64,000 bases of DNA from Desulfocarbo indianensis (lineage in GTDB: Bacteria > Desulfobacterota > Desulfarculia > Desulfarculales > Desulfarculaceae). The position numbers and the translations under genes were made by a program. Under the pieces are notes generated by a model. It had not been told where the DNA came from. It ran no database searches and was given only the letters and a program-made list of their open reading frames with translations. Shown one piece after another: positions 36,512 through 59,100 of this stretch (the first letter of the stretch is position 1; the number at the start of each line of letters is the position of its first letter). Where the stretch lies: contig LBMP01000001.1 in assembly GCA_001184205.1 (NCBI GenBank), positions 1,206,001 through 1,270,000 on the forward strand. The letters run 5' to 3'.

Positions 36512-37636
36512 TCAGGCCGGCGGCGTTTCGCCCTCCCGCCGGCCGCCCGGCTCGGGTTTCAGCATGAGCCTGCCTCCCACCGGCAGCGCCTGCAGCCGCG
36601 TCTTCAGCTTGGGGCGGTCTCGCAGATAATTCTCCAGGTCCTTTAGGGGCCAGGCCGGGGGCTCGTCGCCCAGGGGCATGACGCCCCATTGCATGGGTAT
36701 CAGCAAACGGGCGCCCAAATCCTGGAAAGCCTGCACCACCTCGGGCGGGTTCATGTGGGCATAGTGCATGAACCAGCGGGGCTGATAAGCGCCCATGGGC
36801 AGCAGGGCCAGATCGATGCCCGGATAGCGGCGGCCGATTTCCCGGTAGCCCACGAAATAGCCGCTATCTGCCCCGAAGAATATCTTGCGGCCGCCGCGCT
36901 CCATGAGCCAGGCGCACCATAGGACCTCGTTGTAGCCCTGGCCCAGACGCCGCGTCCAATGCTGGGCCGGCAGGCAGGTGAAGCGGGTTCCGCCCACTTC
37001 CACGCTCTGCCACCAATCCAGCTCGCGCACCTCCTTGGCCCCCAATTCCCGCAGCAAGGGGCCCAGGCCCAGGGGGCACAGGGTCACTCCCGCCCTGGGC
37101 AGGAGCGCTTCCAGGCTGTCCGCGTCCAGATGGTCATAATGGTTGTGGCTGATGAGAACCACCGCGCCCTCCGGCACGGCTTGCGGCCCAAAGGGCGCGG
37201 GAACCTTGCGCTTGACCACCGCCGCGCGCTGGCTGAAGAAGGGGTCGGTGAGCACCACCTGGCCGGACCACTGCAAGGCGAAGGTGGCGTGGCCCACCCA
37301 GGTCAGGGAATCGGGCGCGTTCGAGTCGCGCAAATAAGCCCCGTCGTTGGCCTGCACCGGGGTGTCGGGGTCGTTTCCCGCGTCCTCGCCCAGGCTGTTG
37401 CGCGAGAGCACCCAGCGCCAGAAGCTCCACCTGGATCGATCCTCGGGCTGCCAGGGATTGAAGAAAGCGCCGTCCGGCCGGCGGTGGGGCGCGTACAGCG
37501 CGGCCGGGTCCTGGGCGGCCACCTTGGCCCGCCAGGCCTCCTCGTCAAAGGGCCTGGGCGGCAGGCAGCCGGCCAGGCTCATGGTCAAAACAGCCAGGCC
37601 CGCCGCCATAACGACCCAGCGCCTGGCCCCTCTCAT
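36512..37636 (-). CDS. MBL-fold metallohydrolase lipoprotein (NAPE-PLD-like)
   Basis: 374 residues from the ATG at 37636. A signal peptide (residues ~1-24) ends in a lipobox, LAGC. The metallo-beta-lactamase fold has DSLTWVGHATFALQ, LTDPFFSQRA, the metal motif SHNHYDHLD, PAQHWTRR, FFGADSGYF and a C-terminal MQWGVM with the final ligand. This layout is that of NAPE-phospholipase-D-like hydrolases. Its anchoring suggests a phospholipid or other envelope substrate, which is inference. The frame is open upstream but the lipobox fixes the start. Confidence 0.85.
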   Translation of the reverse strand: MRGARRWVVMAAGLAVLTMSLAGCLPPRPFDEEAWRAKVAAQDPAALYAPHRRPDGAFFNPWQPEDRSRWSFWRWVLSRNSLGEDAGNDPDTPVQANDGAYLRDSNAPDSLTWVGHATFALQWSGQVVLTDPFFSQRAAVVKRKVPAPFGPQAVPEGAVVLISHNHYDHLDADSLEALLPRAGVTLCPLGLGPLLRELGAKEVRELDWWQSVEVGGTRFTCLPAQHWTRRLGQGYNEVLWCAWLMERGGRKIFFGADSGYFVGYREIGRRYPGIDLALLPMGAYQPRWFMHYAHMNPPEVVQAFQDLGARLLIPMQWGVMPLGDEPPAWPLKDLENYLRDRPKLKTRLQALPVGGRLMLKPEPGGRREGETPPA

Positions 37637-37718
37637 TGCCGATCTGCTTAACGCCACCCGCACCTGCCCTTCGCATGGTTCATTCAATCTAATCACAAGC
37701 CGGGGCAAGGGCAAGCCT

Positions 37719-37852
37719 GCCCGCATATTTCATGGGGCGCGGCCGGTTCGGGTGGCGGAGTGCGGCCCTCGCATATGGGGCTCGTCCTTTAAGCAGCCCG
37801 CCATGATCGGCGAATCCGCCGTGACCACCGGACCCGCATTGAATGCGCGGGT
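37719..37852. repeat. Diverged, shortened copy of the MITE-like element
   Basis: Begins GCCCGCATATTTCATGGGGC, matching the 28114 terminus, then resembles the right half of the first copy (GGAGTGCGGCC, CATGATCGGCGAATCCGC and neighbours). The right end is replaced by an imperfect hairpin ACCCGCATT-G-AATGCGCGGGT at 37832-37852 that touches the stop codon of the tape-measure-like gene. About 120 bp of the left interior of the first copy is missing. It may act as the terminator for the gene on the minus strand. Confidence 0.65.
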
Positions 37853-40419
37853 TAGGCGTGAATGCGGCGGCGTTCGATGTCCTTGAGCTTGCCCTCGATC
37901 AAGCGGGCCAAATCCTCCAGGTTTTCCTCGCTGCCCAGCAGGTTGCCGTGCACCTCCACGTGCAGGTTCACCATCTGCCCGCCCGAGGCCTCGCCCATGG
38001 GCCGGCCGGTCTGGTTGAGGGCTTGCAGCCAGGGCAGGGTGGCGGCGGTGACGCTGTCGGCCCGCACCACGTATTCGCCGCGCTGGGCGATGATGGGCAC
38101 CTCGTCGGCGGAAAGCCTTTTCACCATGGAGCCCTGATGATAGCGCGGCGCGGCGGAAAGCCAGCCGCCCTGGTGCATGATGAGCCCGCCCAAATGCTTT
38201 TCCGTCGCGGTGTTGGTGTTGCTGAATTCCGGCGGGGCCTCGTTGGCCCAATGCCAGTCCAGGGCGATGTTGCGGTCCGGTATGCCCTCTATGGCCGCGG
38301 CCAATTGGCGCATCTGCTCGGCGGTCAATTCCCCGCTCTTGGCCGCCGCCTCCAGGGCCGCCTTGAATTCCTTGTCCATGCGCTCGGCCACCTGCTCGGT
38401 GGTGATGTCTCCCAGGAGCAGGTCCTCGGTGAGTCCGGCCACGGTCTGGCTGAGGCCCGAGGTGTCCAGCCCGGCCTGGCCCAACACCCCCACCAGCCGG
38501 GTCAGCTCGCCGTTCACCTGCTCGGCGCCGCCGTCCCAGTCGTGGTATTTGATCAGGGCCTGGTCCACCTGGTGGTTGAGCAGCTCGCTGGCCTGGGCCG
38601 CCTCGAACATGGCCGCGCCCACCAGGCCCAGGCCCTCGATGGGTATGCCGGTGGCCTGGCCCAATTCCTCCAGCTTTTGTATCTGGAGCTGAATGGCCTC
38701 CATCTCCGACTCTATGCCCTGGACCTGAAGCTCCGAGGCCCCGGCTTCCACCGCTTGCTGGCGGGATTCCTCCATCTGGACCAGTTGTTGCTCCAGGCCG
38801 GCCACGCCCAAGACCAGGAGGTCCACCTCCTGGGCGGAGATGCCGGCCCGCTCGGCGATGCGCTCGATCTCCACCGCCGAATCCTGGATGTATTGCAGGC
38901 TGAAGCCGCCCTCGGAATTCTGGGCGCGTTGCAGATATTCCATGTCCGCCCGCATGTAGTCCTGGGCGCTGGCCTGGCTGTGCCCGCCGCCGGGGGTGAG
39001 CCCCAGGATGGTGCCGATGGCATTGGTGATGCCCTCGGTGGGGCCGGGCATGCCCATGAGGCTGGCGAAAAGCTCCACCCCGCCGAAGATGCCCGCCCCG
39101 GCCATGAGCGCCGGATTCATGCCGCCGCTGCCGCCGAACAGGTTCTCCAGGCCGGAAAACAGATCGCCGCTGAAAAGGTCCTTGACGCCGCCTAAAATAT
39201 CGCCGCCCAACAGGTCCTTGAATTGCCCCGCCAGGTCGCCCAATCCGCCCAGCAGGTCGGAGTTGATGAAGGCGTCCAAGAGCCCGTCGCCCTGTCCCAG
39301 CGCCGCCAGAAAATCGGAGACGCCTTCTCCCAGGCCGCTGCCCAGGAGATCGCCCAGCATGCCGCCCAGGTCCAGCCCGCCCGCGCCGAAGAGCTGGTCC
39401 GCCAGGCCACCCAGGTCGAAATCAAACAGATCGCCCAGGCCGAAGTCCAGCAAGCCGCCCAGATCGAGATCGAAAAATCCCCCCAAGAGGTCGCCCAGGC
39501 CGCCGAAATCGAACCCATCCAACAGCCCGCCCAGCATGCCCTTGAGCCCGCCCAGCAGATCGCCCAGAAAACCGCCCAGGTCCAGCCCGCCCAGGAGGCT
39601 CTTCAGCCAGCCGCTGAGGTCGTTGAGCAGCCCGCCCAGGGCCTCCTGGCCCCATTTGGCCAGGGAGGAGAGCATGCCGTCCAGGGTGCTGTCCAATACG
39701 CCGGAAAAGCCGGAGACCGAGTTTTCCCACAAATCACTAAGGCTATTTATCTCGCCGGAAAAAACACCACCGAGCACGTCCTGCGCGAGGGTTCCGATTT
39801 GATTAAGACATGTATCGGCATAAGAATCCATCATTGAAAAGCTGGCATTAGCGATTTCCCCGGTTCCTTCGATCTGGGGATAAAGCAGATCCGGGAACAA
39901 ATCGGCAAGGTCGGAGATGGTGTTCTCGCCCTCATCGTACATGCCAGCGAAGCAGGCGGAAGCGCCGCTAGCGGCTTTCTCCATGCCTGAGGCGAGGGAG
40001 TCTCCAAAATCTACCCCCAGCTTGGACAGCTTGTCTTTGGCGCCGTCAACGTTTTTGTGGAAGTCATCCAAAGATTTTCTAAGTTTTTCGGAGCTTTCAA
40101 ACTGATCCGCCATCTCTAGCAGGCCTAAAACCGAGTTTCCGATATCTCCCACAACCGGGGCTATGCCAATCAAGTCTTTGATCCAGGCAGTCGAAGCTTC
40201 AAGGTTTCGATTGCTATCAATTTCCAATAGCCCATTTTCTATGAGCCGTAGATGCTTTTGTAGATTTGCAACCTCGGTAGAAAGGTTCTCAAATTTAGTT
40301 TCGAGTGCCTCCAAGGCCTTGGATGTCGTGTCAGTGAATTTCCTCGCGCTTTCCGCCAGGTTTCCAAAAGCCTTGTCAGCCGCCCCAAAGCCGTTCAAAT
40401 CAAGTTCAAGCTTAAACAT
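37852..40419 (-). CDS. Phage tail tape-measure-like protein with Gly/Leu/Asp repeats
   Basis: 855 residues, ATG preceded by GAGGA. Residues ~1-225 are helical and encoded by AT-richer DNA; ~255-440 are dense LGGLLGD/DFGGLGDLL-type repeats; ~520-620 predict coiled coil (EEL, QQLVQMEESRQQAVEAG). The end has ADEVPIIAQRGEYVVRADS and LPWLQALNQTGRP, the pattern seen at the C-termini of tail tape-measure and minor tail proteins. No capsid, tail-tube or baseplate gene is nearby, so it is an orphan. No signal peptide. Could instead be a bacterial repeat protein that captured a tail-derived end. Confidence 0.6.
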   Translation of the reverse strand: MFKLELDLNGFGAADKAFGNLAESARKFTDTTSKALEALETKFENLSTEVANLQKHLRLIENGLLEIDSNRNLEASTAWIKDLIGIAPVVGDIGNSVLGLLEMADQFESSEKLRKSLDDFHKNVDGAKDKLSKLGVDFGDSLASGMEKAASGASACFAGMYDEGENTISDLADLFPDLLYPQIEGTGEIANASFSMMDSYADTCLNQIGTLAQDVLGGVFSGEINSLSDLWENSVSGFSGVLDSTLDGMLSSLAKWGQEALGGLLNDLSGWLKSLLGGLDLGGFLGDLLGGLKGMLGGLLDGFDFGGLGDLLGGFFDLDLGGLLDFGLGDLFDFDLGGLADQLFGAGGLDLGGMLGDLLGSGLGEGVSDFLAALGQGDGLLDAFINSDLLGGLGDLAGQFKDLLGGDILGGVKDLFSGDLFSGLENLFGGSGGMNPALMAGAGIFGGVELFASLMGMPGPTEGITNAIGTILGLTPGGGHSQASAQDYMRADMEYLQRAQNSEGGFSLQYIQDSAVEIERIAERAGISAQEVDLLVLGVAGLEQQLVQMEESRQQAVEAGASELQVQGIESEMEAIQLQIQKLEELGQATGIPIEGLGLVGAAMFEAAQASELLNHQVDQALIKYHDWDGGAEQVNGELTRLVGVLGQAGLDTSGLSQTVAGLTEDLLLGDITTEQVAERMDKEFKAALEAAAKSGELTAEQMRQLAAAIEGIPDRNIALDWHWANEAPPEFSNTNTATEKHLGGLIMHQGGWLSAAPRYHQGSMVKRLSADEVPIIAQRGEYVVRADSVTAATLPWLQALNQTGRPMGEASGGQMVNLHVEVHGNLLGSEENLEDLARLIEGKLKDIERRRIHA

Positions 40420-40519
40420 GATATGGTCCTCATAATGATATGGTCACTAAATAGCTATTTTGGCAGCAAGAATAAGACGGAAAAGCAATCAAAAGCCAAT
40501 ACGGTATTTCACTAAATGA

Positions 40520-40548
40520 TTGACTTGTATTTTAAGACTGGGCACAAT
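40520..40548 (+). promoter_or_regulatory. Candidate promoter of the beta-repeat gene cluster
   Basis: TTGACT (40520-40525), 17-nt spacer, CACAAT (40543-40548), 43 nt before the first paralog's ATG at 40592. It matches the sigma-70 pattern with five of six -35 bases. Confidence 0.55.
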
Positions 40549-40591
40549 GCCGTGGACCGCAATGACTATTCTATAAGGGGGAAATCAAGCG

Positions 40592-41104
40592 ATGAATAAA
40601 CCGAAAATTATTGCCGCGATACTTGTATCAATGTTAGCGAGCTTTTTGACGCAAGCGATAATCGCCTACTCCAGCTCACAAGATGGCGCGGTAAGCGATA
40701 AGAACAAGATAATATATGCGAGGGCATTCTACCTGGTGGACAGCGGCGGTAAGCAGAAAGGAAGTATGAAACTAGACAAGATTGGTGTGCCTAGCGTGAC
40801 GTTATTGCGTGAGTCGAATAATCGGCTTATATCGATCGATTTGATGATGAACAACCCTTATGTTAGCCTCAATAGGAAGAGCGGTAATTCTGGCGTCGGA
40901 ATGAATATATCGCTTGGTAATTATCCAACTATAGGAGTAGGCTATAGAAATGGAATAAGCGCGGCTGAGTTAAAATTATCGCGCACCATTCCTCTTGTCT
41001 CAATTAATCACGCCGGAGGCAAATCAGCAATAGAAATGCTATCCTGGATAGCCAATGGAATAAGAATATCGCAGCCGGGCAATAAATATAAAATAATAAG
41101 ATAA
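40592..41104 (+). CDS. Membrane-anchored beta-repeat protein, paralog 1
   Basis: 170 residues behind GGGGGAAA. Residues 1-25 (KIIAAILVSMLASFLTQAII) are a signal anchor, then a short Ser/Asp linker and repeated ~20-25-residue units with a hydrophobic-strand, [DN]xxG turn, strand pattern (YLVDSGGKQKGSMKLDKIG, then NPYVSLNRKSGNSGVGMNI). It ends GNKYKIIR, as does paralog 2 (GSYKIIR). No known domain recognised. Codons are AT-rich against the surrounding genome. Likely extracytoplasmic beta-solenoid or beta-sandwich; function unknown. Confidence 0.7.
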   Translation: MNKPKIIAAILVSMLASFLTQAIIAYSSSQDGAVSDKNKIIYARAFYLVDSGGKQKGSMKLDKIGVPSVTLLRESNNRLISIDLMMNNPYVSLNRKSGNSGVGMNISLGNYPTIGVGYRNGISAAELKLSRTIPLVSINHAGGKSAIEMLSWIANGIRISQPGNKYKIIR

Positions 41105-41163
41105 CGATATCTTCGATCTACAGCGATAACCATATGCTCTATTTATATAAGGCGGTATGAATC

Positions 41164-41676
41164 ATGAATAAGCTGAATTTATTTATAATGTTGTTTGTGG
41201 CGCTCCTTGCAAGCTTTGTCACGCAGGCTATAATGGCTTATAGCAGCTCTAGTGAGAGCACAACGGGGGACACGAATAAAAAAATCTACGCTAATGGGTT
41301 CGTCCTGCTGGACAAGGAGGGCCGGGAAAGAGGCTGGTTCAAAATCGACGAAAATGGTCAGCCAGTCCTTGCGCTCAGGCGTGAAGATGGCAGCGATTTC
41401 ATATCTCTTTGCGTGCGCGATAACATGCCGTATATCGCTCTGTCTGATGAAGAAGGAACGCCAAGGGTTAGCATGGGCATGACGATTAAGGAGTATCCTT
41501 ATATCAGCGTTAATTATCCAAATGGTTCGCGTGCCGCGGTAATGGAACTTGTGCGTGACGTTCCCAGCATATCTGTCAATGATGACGCCGGTAAAAAGGC
41601 GGTGGAGATGACCAGGGACCCTGAAAATGTAATTAAAATACTGCAAACTGATGGAAGCTATAAGATCATTAGATAA
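41164..41676 (+). CDS. Membrane-anchored beta-repeat protein, paralog 2
   Basis: 170 residues, the same length as paralog 1 and 60 nt downstream of it. The N-terminal anchor reads LLASFVTQAIMAYSSS against LLASFLTQAIIAYSSS-like in paralog 1. Repeats are cleaner: FVLLDKEGRERGWFKIDENG, PVLALRREDGSDFISL, PYIALSDEEGTPRVSM, PYISVNYPNGSRAAVM. Each has strand, D/N-x-x-G turn, R/K, strand. Ends GSYKIIR. A recent tandem duplication is inferred from the shared ends and spacing. Confidence 0.72.
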   Translation: MNKLNLFIMLFVALLASFVTQAIMAYSSSSESTTGDTNKKIYANGFVLLDKEGRERGWFKIDENGQPVLALRREDGSDFISLCVRDNMPYIALSDEEGTPRVSMGMTIKEYPYISVNYPNGSRAAVMELVRDVPSISVNDDAGKKAVEMTRDPENVIKILQTDGSYKIIR

Positions 41677-41861
41677 CTGTTATTTTGATTTAGTTGTTCG
41701 ATAACAAATCGCGGCTAAATAACTTATTATCATAAATTAGTAGTGCCATTCTGGGCTATTAATTCATTAGCCCGGGAGACGACTAATGTCTTGTTTGCCA
41801 GACATAGGTAAGGTCTGTTTTGCTTGAATTACGATGCGAATTCGCTATAGATTAAAAGTGA

Positions 41862-42116
41862 CCAATTCGCGGTTATGATATTGCTAAGGGAGGCGGCAGG
41901 AGGGCATGGTTAAAAGCACTAATAAAATCAAAGAGCTGGATATTTATATTTATTGGCGGATATGTTGTTTTGCAGGAAACTTTTTCTGATGTGCTGAGAA
42001 TGTGGCCAGATAGAGGAGCTTTGGGGGGGTATCTTATAGTATGCGCTCTATTGATAACTTATCATGAAAAACGCATGCTGGATGCGAAACATATATCAGA
42101 TGAAGAAGATAAATAA
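41862..42116 (+). pseudogene. Small membrane-protein frame without a start codon
   Basis: This frame follows a stop and has no ATG, GTG or TTG before its hydrophobic part. From 41907 it reads WLKALIKSKSWIFIFIGGY, then a second hydrophobic stretch (GALGGYLIVCALLITY) and an acidic/basic tail ending SDEEDK. An ATG at 41906 with AGGAGGG just upstream lies one base out of frame. A single-base indel would join them into a ~70-residue two-helix protein. Could be a frameshifted gene or sequencing error. Confidence 0.4.
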
Positions 42117-42257
42117 TATGTTAAGTCCGCGTATTGCGCTGTGAATATGTGTTCAATTGGCTGCTGGGTACCGTTGTTTTTTCATTGTGAAATGTAGAAT
42201 CTATATCTGATAAGTAAAATGTGTTAGTGACGGTTAGACTTGATTGGGGGAATCAAA

Positions 42258-43220
42258 ATGGACAGAAAAACGAAGTTTAGGACTGTGATATCGATGGTAT
42301 TGTCTGGTTTGGCAAGCGTGATAATGGTAAATTTGATGAATGGAGGTTTTACGAATGCAAACAGCAAAGATAAAATAATTGTCGCTGATTCATTTGGTTT
42401 AAGCGATAAGCAAGGAAGAATAAGAGCCGGCCTGAGCATGGATAAAAATGAGCTAGTATTTTTTCTTGCCGACGAAGATGGTAAAAAGAAGCTTTCCATC
42501 AGCCTTGTAAAAGATCAGGCTAGAATTGCGGTTAATAACAAACTAGGCGTAAAAAGCATGGAAATCGGAATTGATAAATCCGACCAGCCGGAAATTTTGC
42601 TGAGGGGGCAAACCGGCAGGCTAAGATGCATGCTTAAGGGGTTTCATGACACTCCGATGTTGACGATGGTCTATGATTCCGGGGAAAAAGCCATGAGCAT
42701 GTATATGGAGAATGATAGCCGCGGAGTGCTCAAGCTAACGCCAAAAGACAGTAAAACAACAACCATGCTGGTTGGCGATAGTAAAGCCAGCGGCCTAAGT
42801 GTAATAAATTCTTATGGGAAACAAAATATAGCGTTTGTAAACAGCGATAAGCTCGGCCCAAAATTGTCCATGCAAAGTTCTTGGGGGAAAGCAAAATGTG
42901 AAGTCACTGCTAATGTAGAAGGTGGTTCTCAGATAGCACTCAGAAATTCTGATGGGTTACATCACGTACTTATCAGCGCGGAAGAAGACGCTGCTCTATT
43001 GGGATTGACCTATGGAGACTTTTTACCTAAGGCAGGAGATCACAGTGTCGTGGCTGGGGTCTTTGGCGAAGCCGCCGAAATCAACAGCGTCAGACCAAGC
43101 GGGCAACGTGTCTTTGCTTTTATTGATGACACGAATGAGCCTTGCTTCGCATTGCTTAATAATGAAAAGCCGGCTTGGAGCATGCCGCCCGACCTTCCCA
43201 AGGCATTAATGCCTAAGTAA
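42258..43220 (+). CDS. Membrane-anchored beta-repeat protein, paralog 3 (long form)
   Basis: 320 residues from the ATG at 42258 with GGGGGAA upstream. The signal anchor is residues ~10-28 (VISMVLSGLASVIMVNLM). Then SFGLSDKQGRIRAGLSMD, FLADEDGKKKLSISL, VNNKLGVKSMEIGI, MVYDSGEKAMSMYM and VINSYGKQNIAFVN continue the strand/[DN]xxGK/strand pattern, about twice as many units as paralogs 1 and 2. The C-terminus, FIDDTNEPCFALLNNEKPAW, has one Cys and ends in a Pro-rich tail. Codon use is AT-rich. Function unknown. Confidence 0.72.
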   Translation: MDRKTKFRTVISMVLSGLASVIMVNLMNGGFTNANSKDKIIVADSFGLSDKQGRIRAGLSMDKNELVFFLADEDGKKKLSISLVKDQARIAVNNKLGVKSMEIGIDKSDQPEILLRGQTGRLRCMLKGFHDTPMLTMVYDSGEKAMSMYMENDSRGVLKLTPKDSKTTTMLVGDSKASGLSVINSYGKQNIAFVNSDKLGPKLSMQSSWGKAKCEVTANVEGGSQIALRNSDGLHHVLISAEEDAALLGLTYGDFLPKAGDHSVVAGVFGEAAEINSVRPSGQRVFAFIDDTNEPCFALLNNEKPAWSMPPDLPKALMPK

Positions 43221-43305
43221 ATATGCTTACTAGAGGACAAGTTACTTCTTGTGGTTACAGTAAAGGCATTTCATCGACTTAAATGAGAGAATAAAAGGAT
43301 AGGAT

Positions 43306-43842
43306 ATGCGGTTTGAAAGATGGACCTCGATAAAAATCGCCCTGGTAGCGTTTATTTCCGCATCCATGGGAGTGATAGTTACGTCATTATTCTTGTCAAC
43401 ACCTGCGGCGAGTGAATCCCGCGTGCAATTTGTAGACAGGCTGGCAACCAATGCGCTTATTTTGGTAGACGCCAACCATAAGTTGAGAGGTGAATTTAGA
43501 ATAGGTAAAGATGGAGATCCGGTTCTCTTTCTAAGGAATTCAAACGGCAAGCCCGTTGTGGGCCTGACAATTGATAAATTTGGCAGCGGGTTAACGGTAA
43601 CCGACGAATTTGGCAATCCAAGGGCTCAAATCGGTTGTGATTTGAGCAAGTCAGGTTATGTGCGCTTGACGGACAGTAGCAACCAAAGGGGAATTGAAGC
43701 AACAATATTTGCAGGGACCCCAAGCCTATCCTTGAAAAACGAGGGGGGAAACCGGCAAATCGAGTTGGCGATTAACAATTATAAGCCGAGTTTATCCATG
43801 GCTAACAAAGAAGGGGTAAAGAAGCTTGCAATTGAACCTTAA
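43306..43842 (+). CDS. Membrane-anchored beta-repeat protein, paralog 4
   Basis: 178 residues behind AAGGATAGGAT. The anchor is residues ~10-30 (IALVAFISASMGVIVTSLFL), then NALILVDANHKLRGEFRIGKD, PVLFLRNSNGKPVVGL, GLTVTDEFGNPRAQIG and PSLSLKNEGGNRQIEL repeats ending PSLSMANKEGVKKLAIEP. The repeat register is the same as in paralogs 1-3 while the anchor sequence differs. It is 85 nt after paralog 3 and shares its strand. Confidence 0.72.
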   Translation: MRFERWTSIKIALVAFISASMGVIVTSLFLSTPAASESRVQFVDRLATNALILVDANHKLRGEFRIGKDGDPVLFLRNSNGKPVVGLTIDKFGSGLTVTDEFGNPRAQIGCDLSKSGYVRLTDSSNQRGIEATIFAGTPSLSLKNEGGNRQIELAINNYKPSLSMANKEGVKKLAIEP

Positions 43843-43984
43843 ACAGTTAGATTGCAACTGCTATCGGGATGCATGGCGGCTATGCAGCCGTGTGTAAATT
43901 GGGATAAAAGTATATCCCGCGCTGAGCGTTTCAAAAAAGATAAAAACCAGCTAGTTAGCTTGATTATCCTGCTGGGGGGAAGCC

Positions 43985-44086
43985 ATGAACAAGTTTCTTC
44001 TTGTAGCTAATGTGGTGCTGCTATTCGTGATAGCTTTAATTGAATACTCGCGCATTGCAAGCGCGCAGGCACGCCCGCCGGCTTAA
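43985..44086 (+). CDS. 33-residue signal-anchor micro-ORF
   Basis: ATG at 43985 with GGGGGGAAG upstream; TAA at 44084-44086. The product MNKFLLVANVVLLFVIALIE plus 13 residues is one hydrophobic helix with a cleavage-like ASA, like the N-termini of the upstream paralogs (MNK start) but with no repeat domain. It is either a truncated family member or a small membrane peptide. It sits at the point where the AT-rich island returns to GC-rich DNA. Confidence 0.45.
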   Translation: MNKFLLVANVVLLFVIALIEYSRIASAQARPPA

Positions 44087-55679: not shown

Positions 55680-56182
55680 CGAATACCATCACTGTACACA
55701 CTGCCCTATGTTAACGGTGGCTTCTTCGTGCTTAATCTTCCATTCAAGTTCTCTGGAATTATGTATAAAATGATTTGGCCTAAAGTTTTTAGGGGCCAAC
55801 ATCCAATTGGCGATTGGATTTGTTACATCTCTAGCGGAATTCGTTGAACATCTGCACAGATAAATGGACTCCCCCCTCCAGGCTAAAATACTTGGCAAAG
55901 GTTGAATTATTGAACGTAGCACCAGTTTGAAACCTGTAGAACCTCTCTCTCGAAAATAAGGGCTTCGAGAACAGCCCAGGAGATCGGGTTGCGCCGATAA
56001 CTACACAGTTGACCATGGGGTATACATGAAATAATTTGTGGGGGGCAGGGAAAACCGTTCTCTGGGGGGAAACTGTGGCAAGCTCCTTAACCCACTAGTT
56101 CCGATATCAATCACTGCAAATATGGATTATGCAATAAACCTTGAGGATCATTGCACTCACAAGGGGAACTGATTAGGAAACG
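55680..56182. other. AT-richer spacer upstream of hsdR
   Basis: 503 bp of lower GC with frames on the minus strand that have no recognisable protein or ribosome binding site. Presumably carries the hsdR promoter; a strong candidate was not found. Could be scar DNA from the neighbouring IS. Confidence 0.4.
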
Positions 56183-59100
56183 ATGACCGAACAAGAACTC
56201 GAACAAGCACTGATCGGCAAACTGACCGATCTCAAATACACCCACCGCCCCGACATCCACGACCGTGCCGCCCTTGAAAGCAACTTCCGCAACCACTTCC
56301 AGGCACTCAACCGCGTCCAGCTCACCGACGGGGAATTCAAGCGCCTCCTCGACGAGATCATCACCCCCGACGTCTTCTCCGCCGCGACCCTGCTCCGCGA
56401 GATCAACAGCTTCACCCGCGACGACGGCACCCCGCTCAACTACACCCTCGTCAACATCAAGGACTGGTGCAAAAACACCTTCGAGGTCGTCAACCAGCTC
56501 CGCATCAACACCGAAAACAGCTTCCAACGCTACGACGTGATGCTGCTTATCAACGGCATCCCCACTGCCCAGATCGAACTCAAGGCCCTCGGCATCAGCC
56601 CCCGCCGGGCCATGCAGCAGATAGTCGACTATAAAAAAGACCCCGGCAACGGCTATACCAAGACCCTGCTCTGCTTCGTCCAGCTCTTCATCGTCTCCAA
56701 CCGGACCGAGACCTATTACTTCGCCAATAACAACGACCGCCATTTCGCCTTCGACGCCGATGAAAACTTCCTGCCCATCTACCAGCACGCCGCCGAAGAC
56801 AACACCAAGATCACTCACCTCGACGATTTCGCCGAGTACTTCCTGCCCAAGTGCACTCTCGCCACTACCATCAGCCGCTACATGGTCCTCGTCGCCTCCG
56901 AGCAGAAGATGCTCATGATGCGCCCCTACCAGGTTTACGCCGTCGAGGCCATCGACCAGTGCATCCGCGAAAACCGCGGCAACGGCTACATCTGGCATAC
57001 CACCGGCTCGGGCAAGACCCTCACCTCCTTCAAGGCCTCCACGCTCCTCAAACTCAACCCCGACATCCACAAGTGCCTCTTCGTCGTCGACCGCAAAGAC
57101 CTCGACCGCCAGACCCGCGAAGAGTTCAACCGCTTCCAGGAAGGCTGCGTCGAGGAAAACACCAACACCGCTGCGCTCGTCCGCCGCCTCGTCTCCGACG
57201 ACTACGCCGACAAGGTCATCGTCACCACCATCCAAAAGCTCGGCCTCGCCCTCGGCGAAAACAGCAAACGCAACAAAAAACGCGCGCAGCGAGGCCGAAC
57301 CACCTACAGCGCCCAACTCGCCACCCTCAGCGACAAGCGCATGGTCTTCATCTTCGACGAGTGCCACCGTTCCCAGTTCGGCCAGACCCACCAGACCATC
57401 AAGAACTTCTTCCCCAAGGCCCAACTCTTCGGCTTCACCGGCACGCCGATCTTTACCGAAAACGCCACCGCCCGGCAAATCGATGGCAACGTCCAGACCC
57501 TCCGCACCACCCAGGACCTTTTTCAGAGCGAACTCCACGCCTACACCATCACCCACGCCATCGAAGACAAAAACGTCCTTCGCTTCCACGTGGATTACTT
57601 CAAGTCCGACGGCGAAAACCCGCCCAGGCCCGGCGAAACCCTCGCAAAACTCGCCGTCATCGACGCCATCCTCGCCAAGCACGACGCCGCCACCGGCGAG
57701 CGCCGCTTCAACGCGCTCTTTGCCACCGCCTCGATCAACGACGCCATCGAGTACCACAAGCTTTTCAAGCAGGTCCAGGCCGAGCGCCAGGCCGGCGATC
57801 CCGACTTCGTCCCCCTCAAGGTCGCCGCAGTCTTCTCACCGCCCGCCGAGGGCAACAAGGATGTCCAGCAGCTCCAGGAAGACCTGCCCCAGGAACTCGC
57901 AGACAACCAGCAGGAGCCGAAGAAGAAAAAGAAAGCCCTCAAGGCCATCATCGCCGATTATAACGCCCGCTACGGCACGAATCACTCCATCGACGAGTTC
58001 GACGCCTATTACCAGGACGTCCAGAAACGCATCAAGGACCAGCAATACCCCAACCGCGACCTCCCTCAAAAGGGCGCGGAAAAGATCGACATCACCATCG
58101 TCGTCGATATGCTCCTGACCGGCTTCGACGCCAAATACCTCAACACCCTTTACGTCGATAAAAACCTCAAGCACCATGGCCTCATCCAGGCTTTCTCCCG
58201 AACCAACCGCGTGCTCAACGCCGCCAAGCCCTACGGCCACATCCTCGACTTCCGCGGCCAGCGGGACAGAGTTGATGAAGCCATCACCTTGTTCTCCGGC
58301 GCGCGAGCCGAACAGGCGAAGGAAATCTGGCTGGTAGAAGAAGCCCCCGTGGTGATCGAACAACTCAAGGCCGCCAGGCGGAAACTGGACGACTTCCTCA
58401 AGTCCCAGGGCCTCGCACCGCGCCCCGAAGCCGTCCCCAACCTCAAGGGCGACGACGCCCGCGCCGCCTTTGTCAGGCAATTCAAAGAGGTCCAGCGCCT
58501 CACCACCCAGCTCGACCAGTACACCGACCTCACCGGCGAGCAGCGTCAAGAGATCGAGCGGACGCTCCCCAGGGACGACGCCCGCGCCTTCCGCGGCGTT
58601 TACCTGGAAACCGCCAAACGCCTCAAAGCCAGACAGGACAAGGCCGGCGGCGGCGACAGCGCCACGCAGGAGGCGATCGACCAGCTCGATTTCGAGTTCG
58701 TGCTCTTCGCCTCGGCCGACATCGACTACGACTACATCATGAACCTCATCGCCCGCTTCAGCGGCCAGCCGCCGAGCCAGCAGGAAATGAACCGCGATCA
58801 GCTCATCAGCCTCATCCGTTCCGACGCCAAGTTCATGGACGAACTCGACGAGATCACCGAATACGTCCGGACGCTGGAAACCGGCCGACCCCTCACCGAG
58901 GAAGAAGTCCGGAGCGGCTACCAGCGCTTCAAGGACCAGCGCCACGCCGACGAGCTCGCCGCCGTCGCGGGCAAGCACGGCCTGACCAACCAGGCGCTGC
59001 AAGACTTTGTGGACGCCATCCTCGACCGCATGATCTTCGACGGCGAGCAGCTCACCGACCTCATGGAGCCCCTGGATCTGGGCTGGCGCGAACGCCGCGA

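What the first reader, a model, noticed from the sequence alone, without database searches (positions are those of the whole stretch)
40592..43842. Tandem array of four paralogous membrane-anchored beta-repeat proteins
Four genes on one strand share an N-terminal signal anchor and repeated ~20-25-residue units of the form strand-[DN]xxG[KR]-strand (for example FVLLDKEGRERGWFKIDENG). Two have the same length (170 aa) and the same GxYKIIR end; one is twice as long. The stretch is markedly AT-rich in a GC-rich genome, pointing to horizontal acquisition. No known family was recognised, so this may be an undescribed surface or periplasmic system.
Basis: partly seen in the sequence, partly recalled or inferred. 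Interest (0 to 1): 0.65.

Follow-up and report, generated by a model that had tools for sequence, protein, structure and literature searches.

The report
Variable anchored sheets beside lone tape-measure protein
Four related membrane-anchored proteins, each predicted to be a flat one-layer sheet, sit back to back with a lone bacterial gene descended from a phage tail "tape measure", and in related bacteria the facing ends of these two genes are swapped as a unit, which suggests a fast-changing recognition or immunity pair that has not been described.

Summary
The four paralogs are real, homologous and undescribed (no Pfam, NCBIfam, PHROG or PADLOC match). AlphaFold2 of the second gives one N-terminal membrane helix plus a single-layer antiparallel beta-sheet like OspA/MORN (pLDDT 90), not a solenoid. 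The family reaches about 10% of sampled genomes of the phylum, usually as a lone gene; arrays were seen only in Desulfarculaceae. Divergently transcribed from the array is a stand-alone gene (37852-40419, minus) homologous to the C-terminal half of a phage tail tape measure protein. This pair recurs in 9 of 10 loci where it could be judged, in four genera. In related species the locus is a mosaic: an AT-rich hypervariable core (5' part of the sheet gene, intergenic region, first ~50 codons of the tape-measure gene) lies between GC-rich conserved arms. Synonymous divergence is saturated in the core but genome-typical in the arms; one genome carries three orphan tape-measure 5' fragments, each paired with its own sheet gene. 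Best explanation: a recombination-diversified recognition pair, probably exclusion or immunity, in which the anchored sheet protein binds tape-measure-type proteins. The pair and mosaic are well supported; the binding function is inferred.

The parts
40592..41104 (+). sheet-family gene 1 (170 aa): N-terminal TM anchor + single-layer beta-sheet; first gene, divergent from the tape-measure-like gene
41164..41676 (+). sheet-family gene 2 (170 aa); AlphaFold2 pLDDT 89.9
42258..43220 (+). sheet-family gene 3 (320 aa, longer repeat region)
43306..43842 (+). sheet-family gene 4 (178 aa)
37852..40419 (-). c1: stand-alone protein (855 aa) homologous to the C-terminal part of phage tail tape measure proteins; AT-rich 5' end, GC-rich remainder
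40420..40591 (.). divergent intergenic region between c1 and gene 1 (presumed two-way promoter region; the consensus scan is at chance level)
36512..37726 (-). c5: MBL-fold hydrolase, probable lipoprotein; conserved neighbour downstream of c1 in several relatives
39650..44085 (.). AT-rich island covering the c1 5' end, the intergenic region and all four sheet genes
43985..44086 (+). 33-codon ORF (MNKFLLVANVVLLFVIALIEYSRIASAQARPPA) at the island edge; possible remnant of a fifth signal anchor

Best explanation
The array belongs to a two-component, recombination-diversified recognition locus of Desulfarculaceae. Component 1 is the sheet family: proteins held in the inner membrane by one N-terminal helix, with a flat single-layer OspA-like beta-sheet on the periplasmic side. 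Component 2 (c1) is a stand-alone, domesticated C-terminal half of a phage tail tape measure protein with a variable N-terminus and a hydrophobic segment. The two genes are divergent, so their variable parts are contiguous and can be exchanged as one cassette by homologous recombination in conserved flanking arms, while the fixed ends (sheet C-terminus, c1 body) stay put. Most likely function: the anchored sheet binds tape-measure-type proteins at the inner membrane and blocks or controls their insertion or channel action, as membrane-anchored superinfection-exclusion proteins do, with specificity set by the matched variable regions. Arrays of several sheet genes then give several specificities, like poly-immunity arrays. 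Shown: homology, predicted fold, pairing, mosaic cassettes (in relatives). Inferred: membrane topology, physical binding, exclusion or immunity role.
For: Pairing: c1 is divergent from and adjacent to a sheet gene in G000, G003, G004, G008, G009, G010, G012, G014 and G017, four genera. c1 as tape measure homolog: PHROG tape-measure families at E 1e-5 to 1e-7; matches the C-terminal half (res. 676-1270) of a prophage tape measure protein lying among tail-type genes in the same family, HMM E 8e-82; phage contigs in IMG/VR. No other tail gene was recognised at the window locus. Mosaic: in L039 four units have sheet 3' arms 88-100% identical, a core of ~800 nt at 25-60%, and c1 arms at 0.53-1.00; dS of sheet codons 1-150 is saturated or >=2.8, of codons 178-end 0-0.26; c1 codons 1-48 saturated or >=1.5, codons 48-118 0.18-0.39. 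Repeated in L040 and, with anchor and C-terminus fixed and the middle variable, in L036. Across species the arms have dS 0.27-0.65 and neighbouring genes 0.39-0.75, but the core is mostly saturated. The GC dip coincides with the core in several loci. Fold: pLDDT 90, OspA Foldseek E 7.5e-7, Z 11.3. Precedent: membrane-anchored proteins that target the tape measure protein to block DNA injection, TP-J34 Ltp and HK97 gp15 (PMC4465916, PMC3952083, PMC10883804).
Against: No direct evidence of binding. Covariation between the sheet core and the c1 N-terminus is weak: r 0.36, p 0.017 over ten cassettes, which species relatedness could produce; r 0.14, p 0.27 within the AT-type group. c1 has no evident export route or tail genes beside it, so how it would meet a periplasmic partner is unexplained. 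Sheet genes outside Desulfarculaceae usually stand alone without c1, and G011 has c1 without a detected sheet gene. No sheet gene was found in phages, plasmids or viral contigs. The window's own array shows no conserved arms: genes 1 and 2 are saturated throughout. The c1 structure model is poor, pLDDT 49.
Confidence: 0.38

Rival explanations
1. Polymorphic toxin-immunity system: c1 is a membrane-active (pore-forming) effector carried to neighbouring cells, perhaps inside tails of a helper prophage; the anchored sheets are cognate immunity proteins; the orphan c1 5' fragments are stored alternative specificities.
For: One full-length c1 plus orphan variable-end fragments plus several homologous partner genes in one locus; the variable end abuts the partner gene; a hydrophobic segment in every full-length c1 tested; faster protein change in c1 (dN 0.23-0.41 for the body against 0.02-0.11 for neighbouring genes among L036, L042 and L045).
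Against: The variable part is only ~50 residues in these relatives, too small for a usual toxin domain, and lies at the N-terminus; no secretion or tail genes recognised nearby; no PADLOC or Pfam toxin or immunity hit.
Confidence: 0.2
2. Antigenic or phage-receptor variation: the sheets are variable envelope proteins under pressure from phages or predators; c1 is a passenger or an assembly factor, and its N-terminus varies only because it lies next to the recombining sheet gene.
For: In L036 only the middle of the sheet varies, between a fixed anchor and a fixed C-terminus, in four tandem genes; OspA itself is a surface protein.
Against: c1 orphan fragments keep open frames with conserved arms and diverse N-termini; the pairing recurs in four genera; the N-terminal helix without a lipoprotein cysteine suggests the inner membrane rather than the cell surface.
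Confidence: 0.2
3. Decoy or interference defence: c1 is a truncated tape measure that poisons tail assembly of infecting phages, and the sheet proteins hold or regulate it at the membrane.
For: c1 corresponds to half of a real prophage tape measure found in the same family.
Against: Does not explain why the c1 N-terminus and the sheet are both hypervariable and contiguous; no other matching tape measure was found in the window's own genome.
Confidence: 0.1
4. c1 is a decaying prophage remnant and the neighbourhood is coincidence; the sheet array is an unrelated household family.
For: c1 is phage-derived and evolves fast.
Against: c1 is open and full length across four genera with no recognised tail gene beside it, shares a conserved C-terminus (about 55% identity over 108 aa between the window copy and L036, L042 and L045), and pairs with sheet genes in 9 of 10 loci.
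Confidence: 0.07

Closest known systems
OspA central sheet / MORN-repeat proteins
   Same: single-layer antiparallel beta meander built of repeated ~22-residue hairpins (Foldseek E 7.5e-7; Z 11.3 over 129 residues)
   Different: about 10% sequence identity, membrane helix instead of a lipoprotein anchor; no sequence relationship shown
Membrane-anchored superinfection-exclusion proteins that target tape measure proteins (TP-J34 Ltp, HK97 gp15)
   Same: membrane-anchored protein genetically tied to a tape measure-type protein; Ltp acts through its repeat domains
   Different: chromosomal rather than prophage genes, beta-sheet fold, tape-measure gene adjacent and co-diversified; interaction not tested
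Polymorphic toxin / Rhs / CDI loci with orphan modules and poly-immunity arrays (from own knowledge; Rhs orphan in PMC7043789)
   Same: one full-length gene with a variable end next to its partner gene, orphan fragments bearing alternative variable ends, arrays of partner genes, AT-rich exchanged cassettes
   Different: variable end is the N-terminus, partner is divergent, conserved part is a tape measure C-terminal half, no toxin domain recognised
Phage tail tape measure proteins (PHROG 167, 1272, 10030)
   Same: C-terminal homology and a hydrophobic segment
   Different: stand-alone, about half length, new variable N-terminus, no other tail genes recognised beside it

Membership tests
Any catalogued protein family (Pfam, NCBIfam, PHROGs, PADLOC) | sequence match to a family model for the four sheet proteins | tested here: not met
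   no significant hit; weak hits at E 0.017 or worse
OspA / MORN-like single-layer sheet (fold class) | single-layer antiparallel beta meander of repeated hairpins | tested here: met
   AlphaFold2 of gene 2 pLDDT 89.9; Foldseek OspA E 7.5e-7; Z 11.3, MORN Z about 9. Fold only, no common ancestry claimed
Phage tail tape measure protein (c1) | homology to tape measure families | tested here: met
Phage tail tape measure protein (c1) | located in a tail gene cluster | tested here: not met
   none recognised by inspection of predicted proteins around the window copy and the relatives; window neighbours are an MBL hydrolase, the sheet genes, topA and dprA
Superinfection-exclusion protein | membrane anchoring with an exposed domain | tested here: inconclusive
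   hydropathy and the predicted N-terminal helix fit, but a cleavable signal is not excluded
Superinfection-exclusion protein | carried by a phage or prophage | tested here: not met
   no match in phages, plasmids or viral contigs; locus is chromosomal with no tail genes recognised
Superinfection-exclusion protein | blocks phage DNA injection | not testable with these tools
   needs a phage assay
Polymorphic toxin-immunity locus | variable end with conserved remainder, orphan fragments, partner array | tested here: met
   in relatives; not seen in the window's own array
Polymorphic toxin-immunity locus | recognisable toxin domain and delivery module | tested here: not met
   no toxin or secretion hit
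Polymorphic toxin-immunity locus | matched specificity of the two variable parts | tested here: inconclusive
   weak correlation

The most novel reading that the evidence does not exclude
A new class of bacterial conflict or self-recognition system: a domesticated phage tape-measure protein carries an interchangeable N-terminal key, and inner-membrane-anchored single-layer beta-sheet proteins are the matching locks, both swapped together as a two-way cassette, with spare cassettes stored beside the active locus.
Probability: 0.27. Interest if true: 0.85.

Novelty: new variant of a known kind. Interest (0 to 1): 0.62.

Why it matters
It gives a named, testable partner pair to a widespread undescribed protein family, and shows a phage tail tape measure apparently kept outside any phage, with a hypervariable end that recombines together with a membrane protein gene. 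If the pair binds, it would link tape-measure-targeted exclusion to polymorphic immunity and give a natural library of matched variants for mapping how membrane proteins recognise tape measure proteins.

Tried and rejected
Beta-solenoid reading: rejected, the predicted fold is a single-layer sheet. Recent horizontal insertion of the whole stretch: rejected, the locus recurs in other genera and only the core is AT-rich and saturated. Simple prophage: no tail genes recognised around c1, and the window's genome holds no other matching tape measure. Covariation of the c1 N-terminus with the sheet core: weak, not significant within the AT-type group. Gene conversion within the window's own array: not seen. 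Promoter and terminator scan: at chance level. c1 structure: too poor to search. Profile search of named genomes with the full alignment failed for lack of conserved stretches; with a narrower alignment it gave three MAG records, two of them titled Desulfarculaceae. No literature on a stand-alone tape-measure pair of this kind was found in a limited search. The fold lists do not exclude other relatives of the fold.

Full report
Observation. The four genes are real: one strand, each behind a plausible ribosome-binding site, with 59 to 85 bases between neighbours except a 581-base gap before the third, which starts at 42258. They are paralogs: a search of the whole genome with gene 2 returns gene 1 (42% identity, E 1.9e-37), gene 4 (E 1.2e-13) and gene 3 (E 9.6e-11), and two lone relatives on other contigs. 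None matches Pfam, NCBIfam, PHROGs or PADLOC, and gene 3 finds no PDB sequence relative. Each has a single hydrophobic segment at the N-terminus. Foldseek and VIA-align place it with the single-layer sheet of OspA and with MORN sheets. It is not a solenoid.

Distribution. With a profile of 28 members the family is found in 40 of 395 genomes sampled across the phylum at E 1e-5, and in 12 of 20 genomes of the window's family. Records shared with named MAGs (matching contig lengths) identify the family as Desulfarculaceae; one genome of 3,655,731 bases is, from memory, Desulfarculus baarsii. Outside the family the genes examined mostly stand alone. Tandem arrays of two to four occur in Desulfarculaceae.

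The missed partner. Back to back with gene 1, on the minus strand at 37852-40419, lies c1, 855 aa. It and its relatives match tail tape measure families of PHROGs at 1e-5 to 1e-7, its C-terminal ~100 residues match many phage contigs, and its relatives correspond to residues 676-1270 of a 1270-aa tape measure protein in a prophage of the same family. No other tail gene was recognised near c1. c1 is divergent from and adjacent to a sheet gene in nine genomes of four genera. The exception is G011, where c1 has no detected sheet gene; three further copies (G015, G016, G019) are cut by contig ends and cannot be judged. An MBL-fold lipoprotein-like gene lies next to c1 in the window and in L036, L045, L100 and L101, near it in L095, and next to a sheet gene in L038. 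The locus is therefore old in the family and not a recent import.

Mosaic cassettes. In L039 (G004) the full-length c1 is accompanied by three orphan c1 5' fragments of ~150 codons, each divergent from its own sheet gene. Aligning the four units shows sheet 3' ends 88-100% identical, then about 800 nt of core at roughly 25-60% (sheet 5' part, intergenic, c1 codons 1-50), then c1 codons 50-115 at 0.53-1.00, and, in the orphans, a common tail with a strong terminator-like hairpin. Synonymous divergence is saturated or at least 2.8 in sheet codons 1-150 but 0-0.26 after codon 178; in c1 it is saturated or at least 1.5 in codons 1-48 and 0.18-0.39 in codons 48-118. L040 shows the same layout. In L036 four tandem sheet genes share anchor and C-terminus (dS 0.16-0.56 and 0.19-0.32) around a variable middle (dS 1.4-2.5 or saturated). 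Between species the arms (dS 0.27-0.65) match ordinary neighbouring genes (dS 0.39-0.75), whereas cores are mostly saturated. GC falls to about 0.4-0.5 over the cores and returns to 0.6-0.7 in the arms. Synonymous sites cannot easily differ so sharply along one gene by protein selection alone, so the segments have different histories; recombination is the simplest cause. A caveat is that the cores also differ in base composition, which can raise dS estimates.

The window's own array. Here the AT-rich island runs from the 5' part of c1 through all four sheet genes to about 44085. Genes 1 and 2 are saturated throughout, so the conserved-arm mosaic is shown in relatives, not in the window itself. 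No orphan c1 fragment was seen in the window.

Mechanism. [quoted passage not shown]). By analogy the anchored sheets most likely bind tape-measure-type proteins at the inner membrane, with specificity carried by the exchanged parts. The contiguity of the two variable ends is the argument for matched specificity; the direct covariation test was weak. Which target matters (c1 itself, phage tape measures, or c1 delivered by other cells) is open, as is how c1 would reach the periplasm.

Verdict. An undescribed, widespread anchored single-layer-sheet family; in Desulfarculaceae paired with a domesticated tape-measure protein in hypervariable two-way cassettes. Anatomy well supported, function inferred.

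Noticed in passing
window 41870-42118 (+): Open frame of ~80 codons without a standard start in the gap between genes 2 and 3, encoding two hydrophobic segments; possibly a small membrane gene with an unusual start or a remnant.
   Followed up: partly
L037 4269-4856, L041 7434-8036, L044 7668-8171: Lone sheet-family genes share a conserved neighbour (c7, 418 aa, MPSxRxxNLAxxI...) in three genomes including the window's own; a stable branch unlike the variable arrays.
   Followed up: partly
L097 7176-10988: Prophage tape measure protein (1270 aa) of a Desulfarculaceae genome whose C-terminal half is closely related to c1; possible source or recipient of c1 sequence.
   Followed up: partly
L039 7608, 8990, 10357: Near-identical terminator-like hairpin AAGGCCCCGAGGTTTTCCCCGGGGCC ends each orphan unit, at a common truncation point of the c1 fragment.
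   Followed up: partly
window 56001-59000: Strong negative GC skew (to -0.30) with positive AT skew over about 3 kb, at the far end of the window.
   Followed up: no
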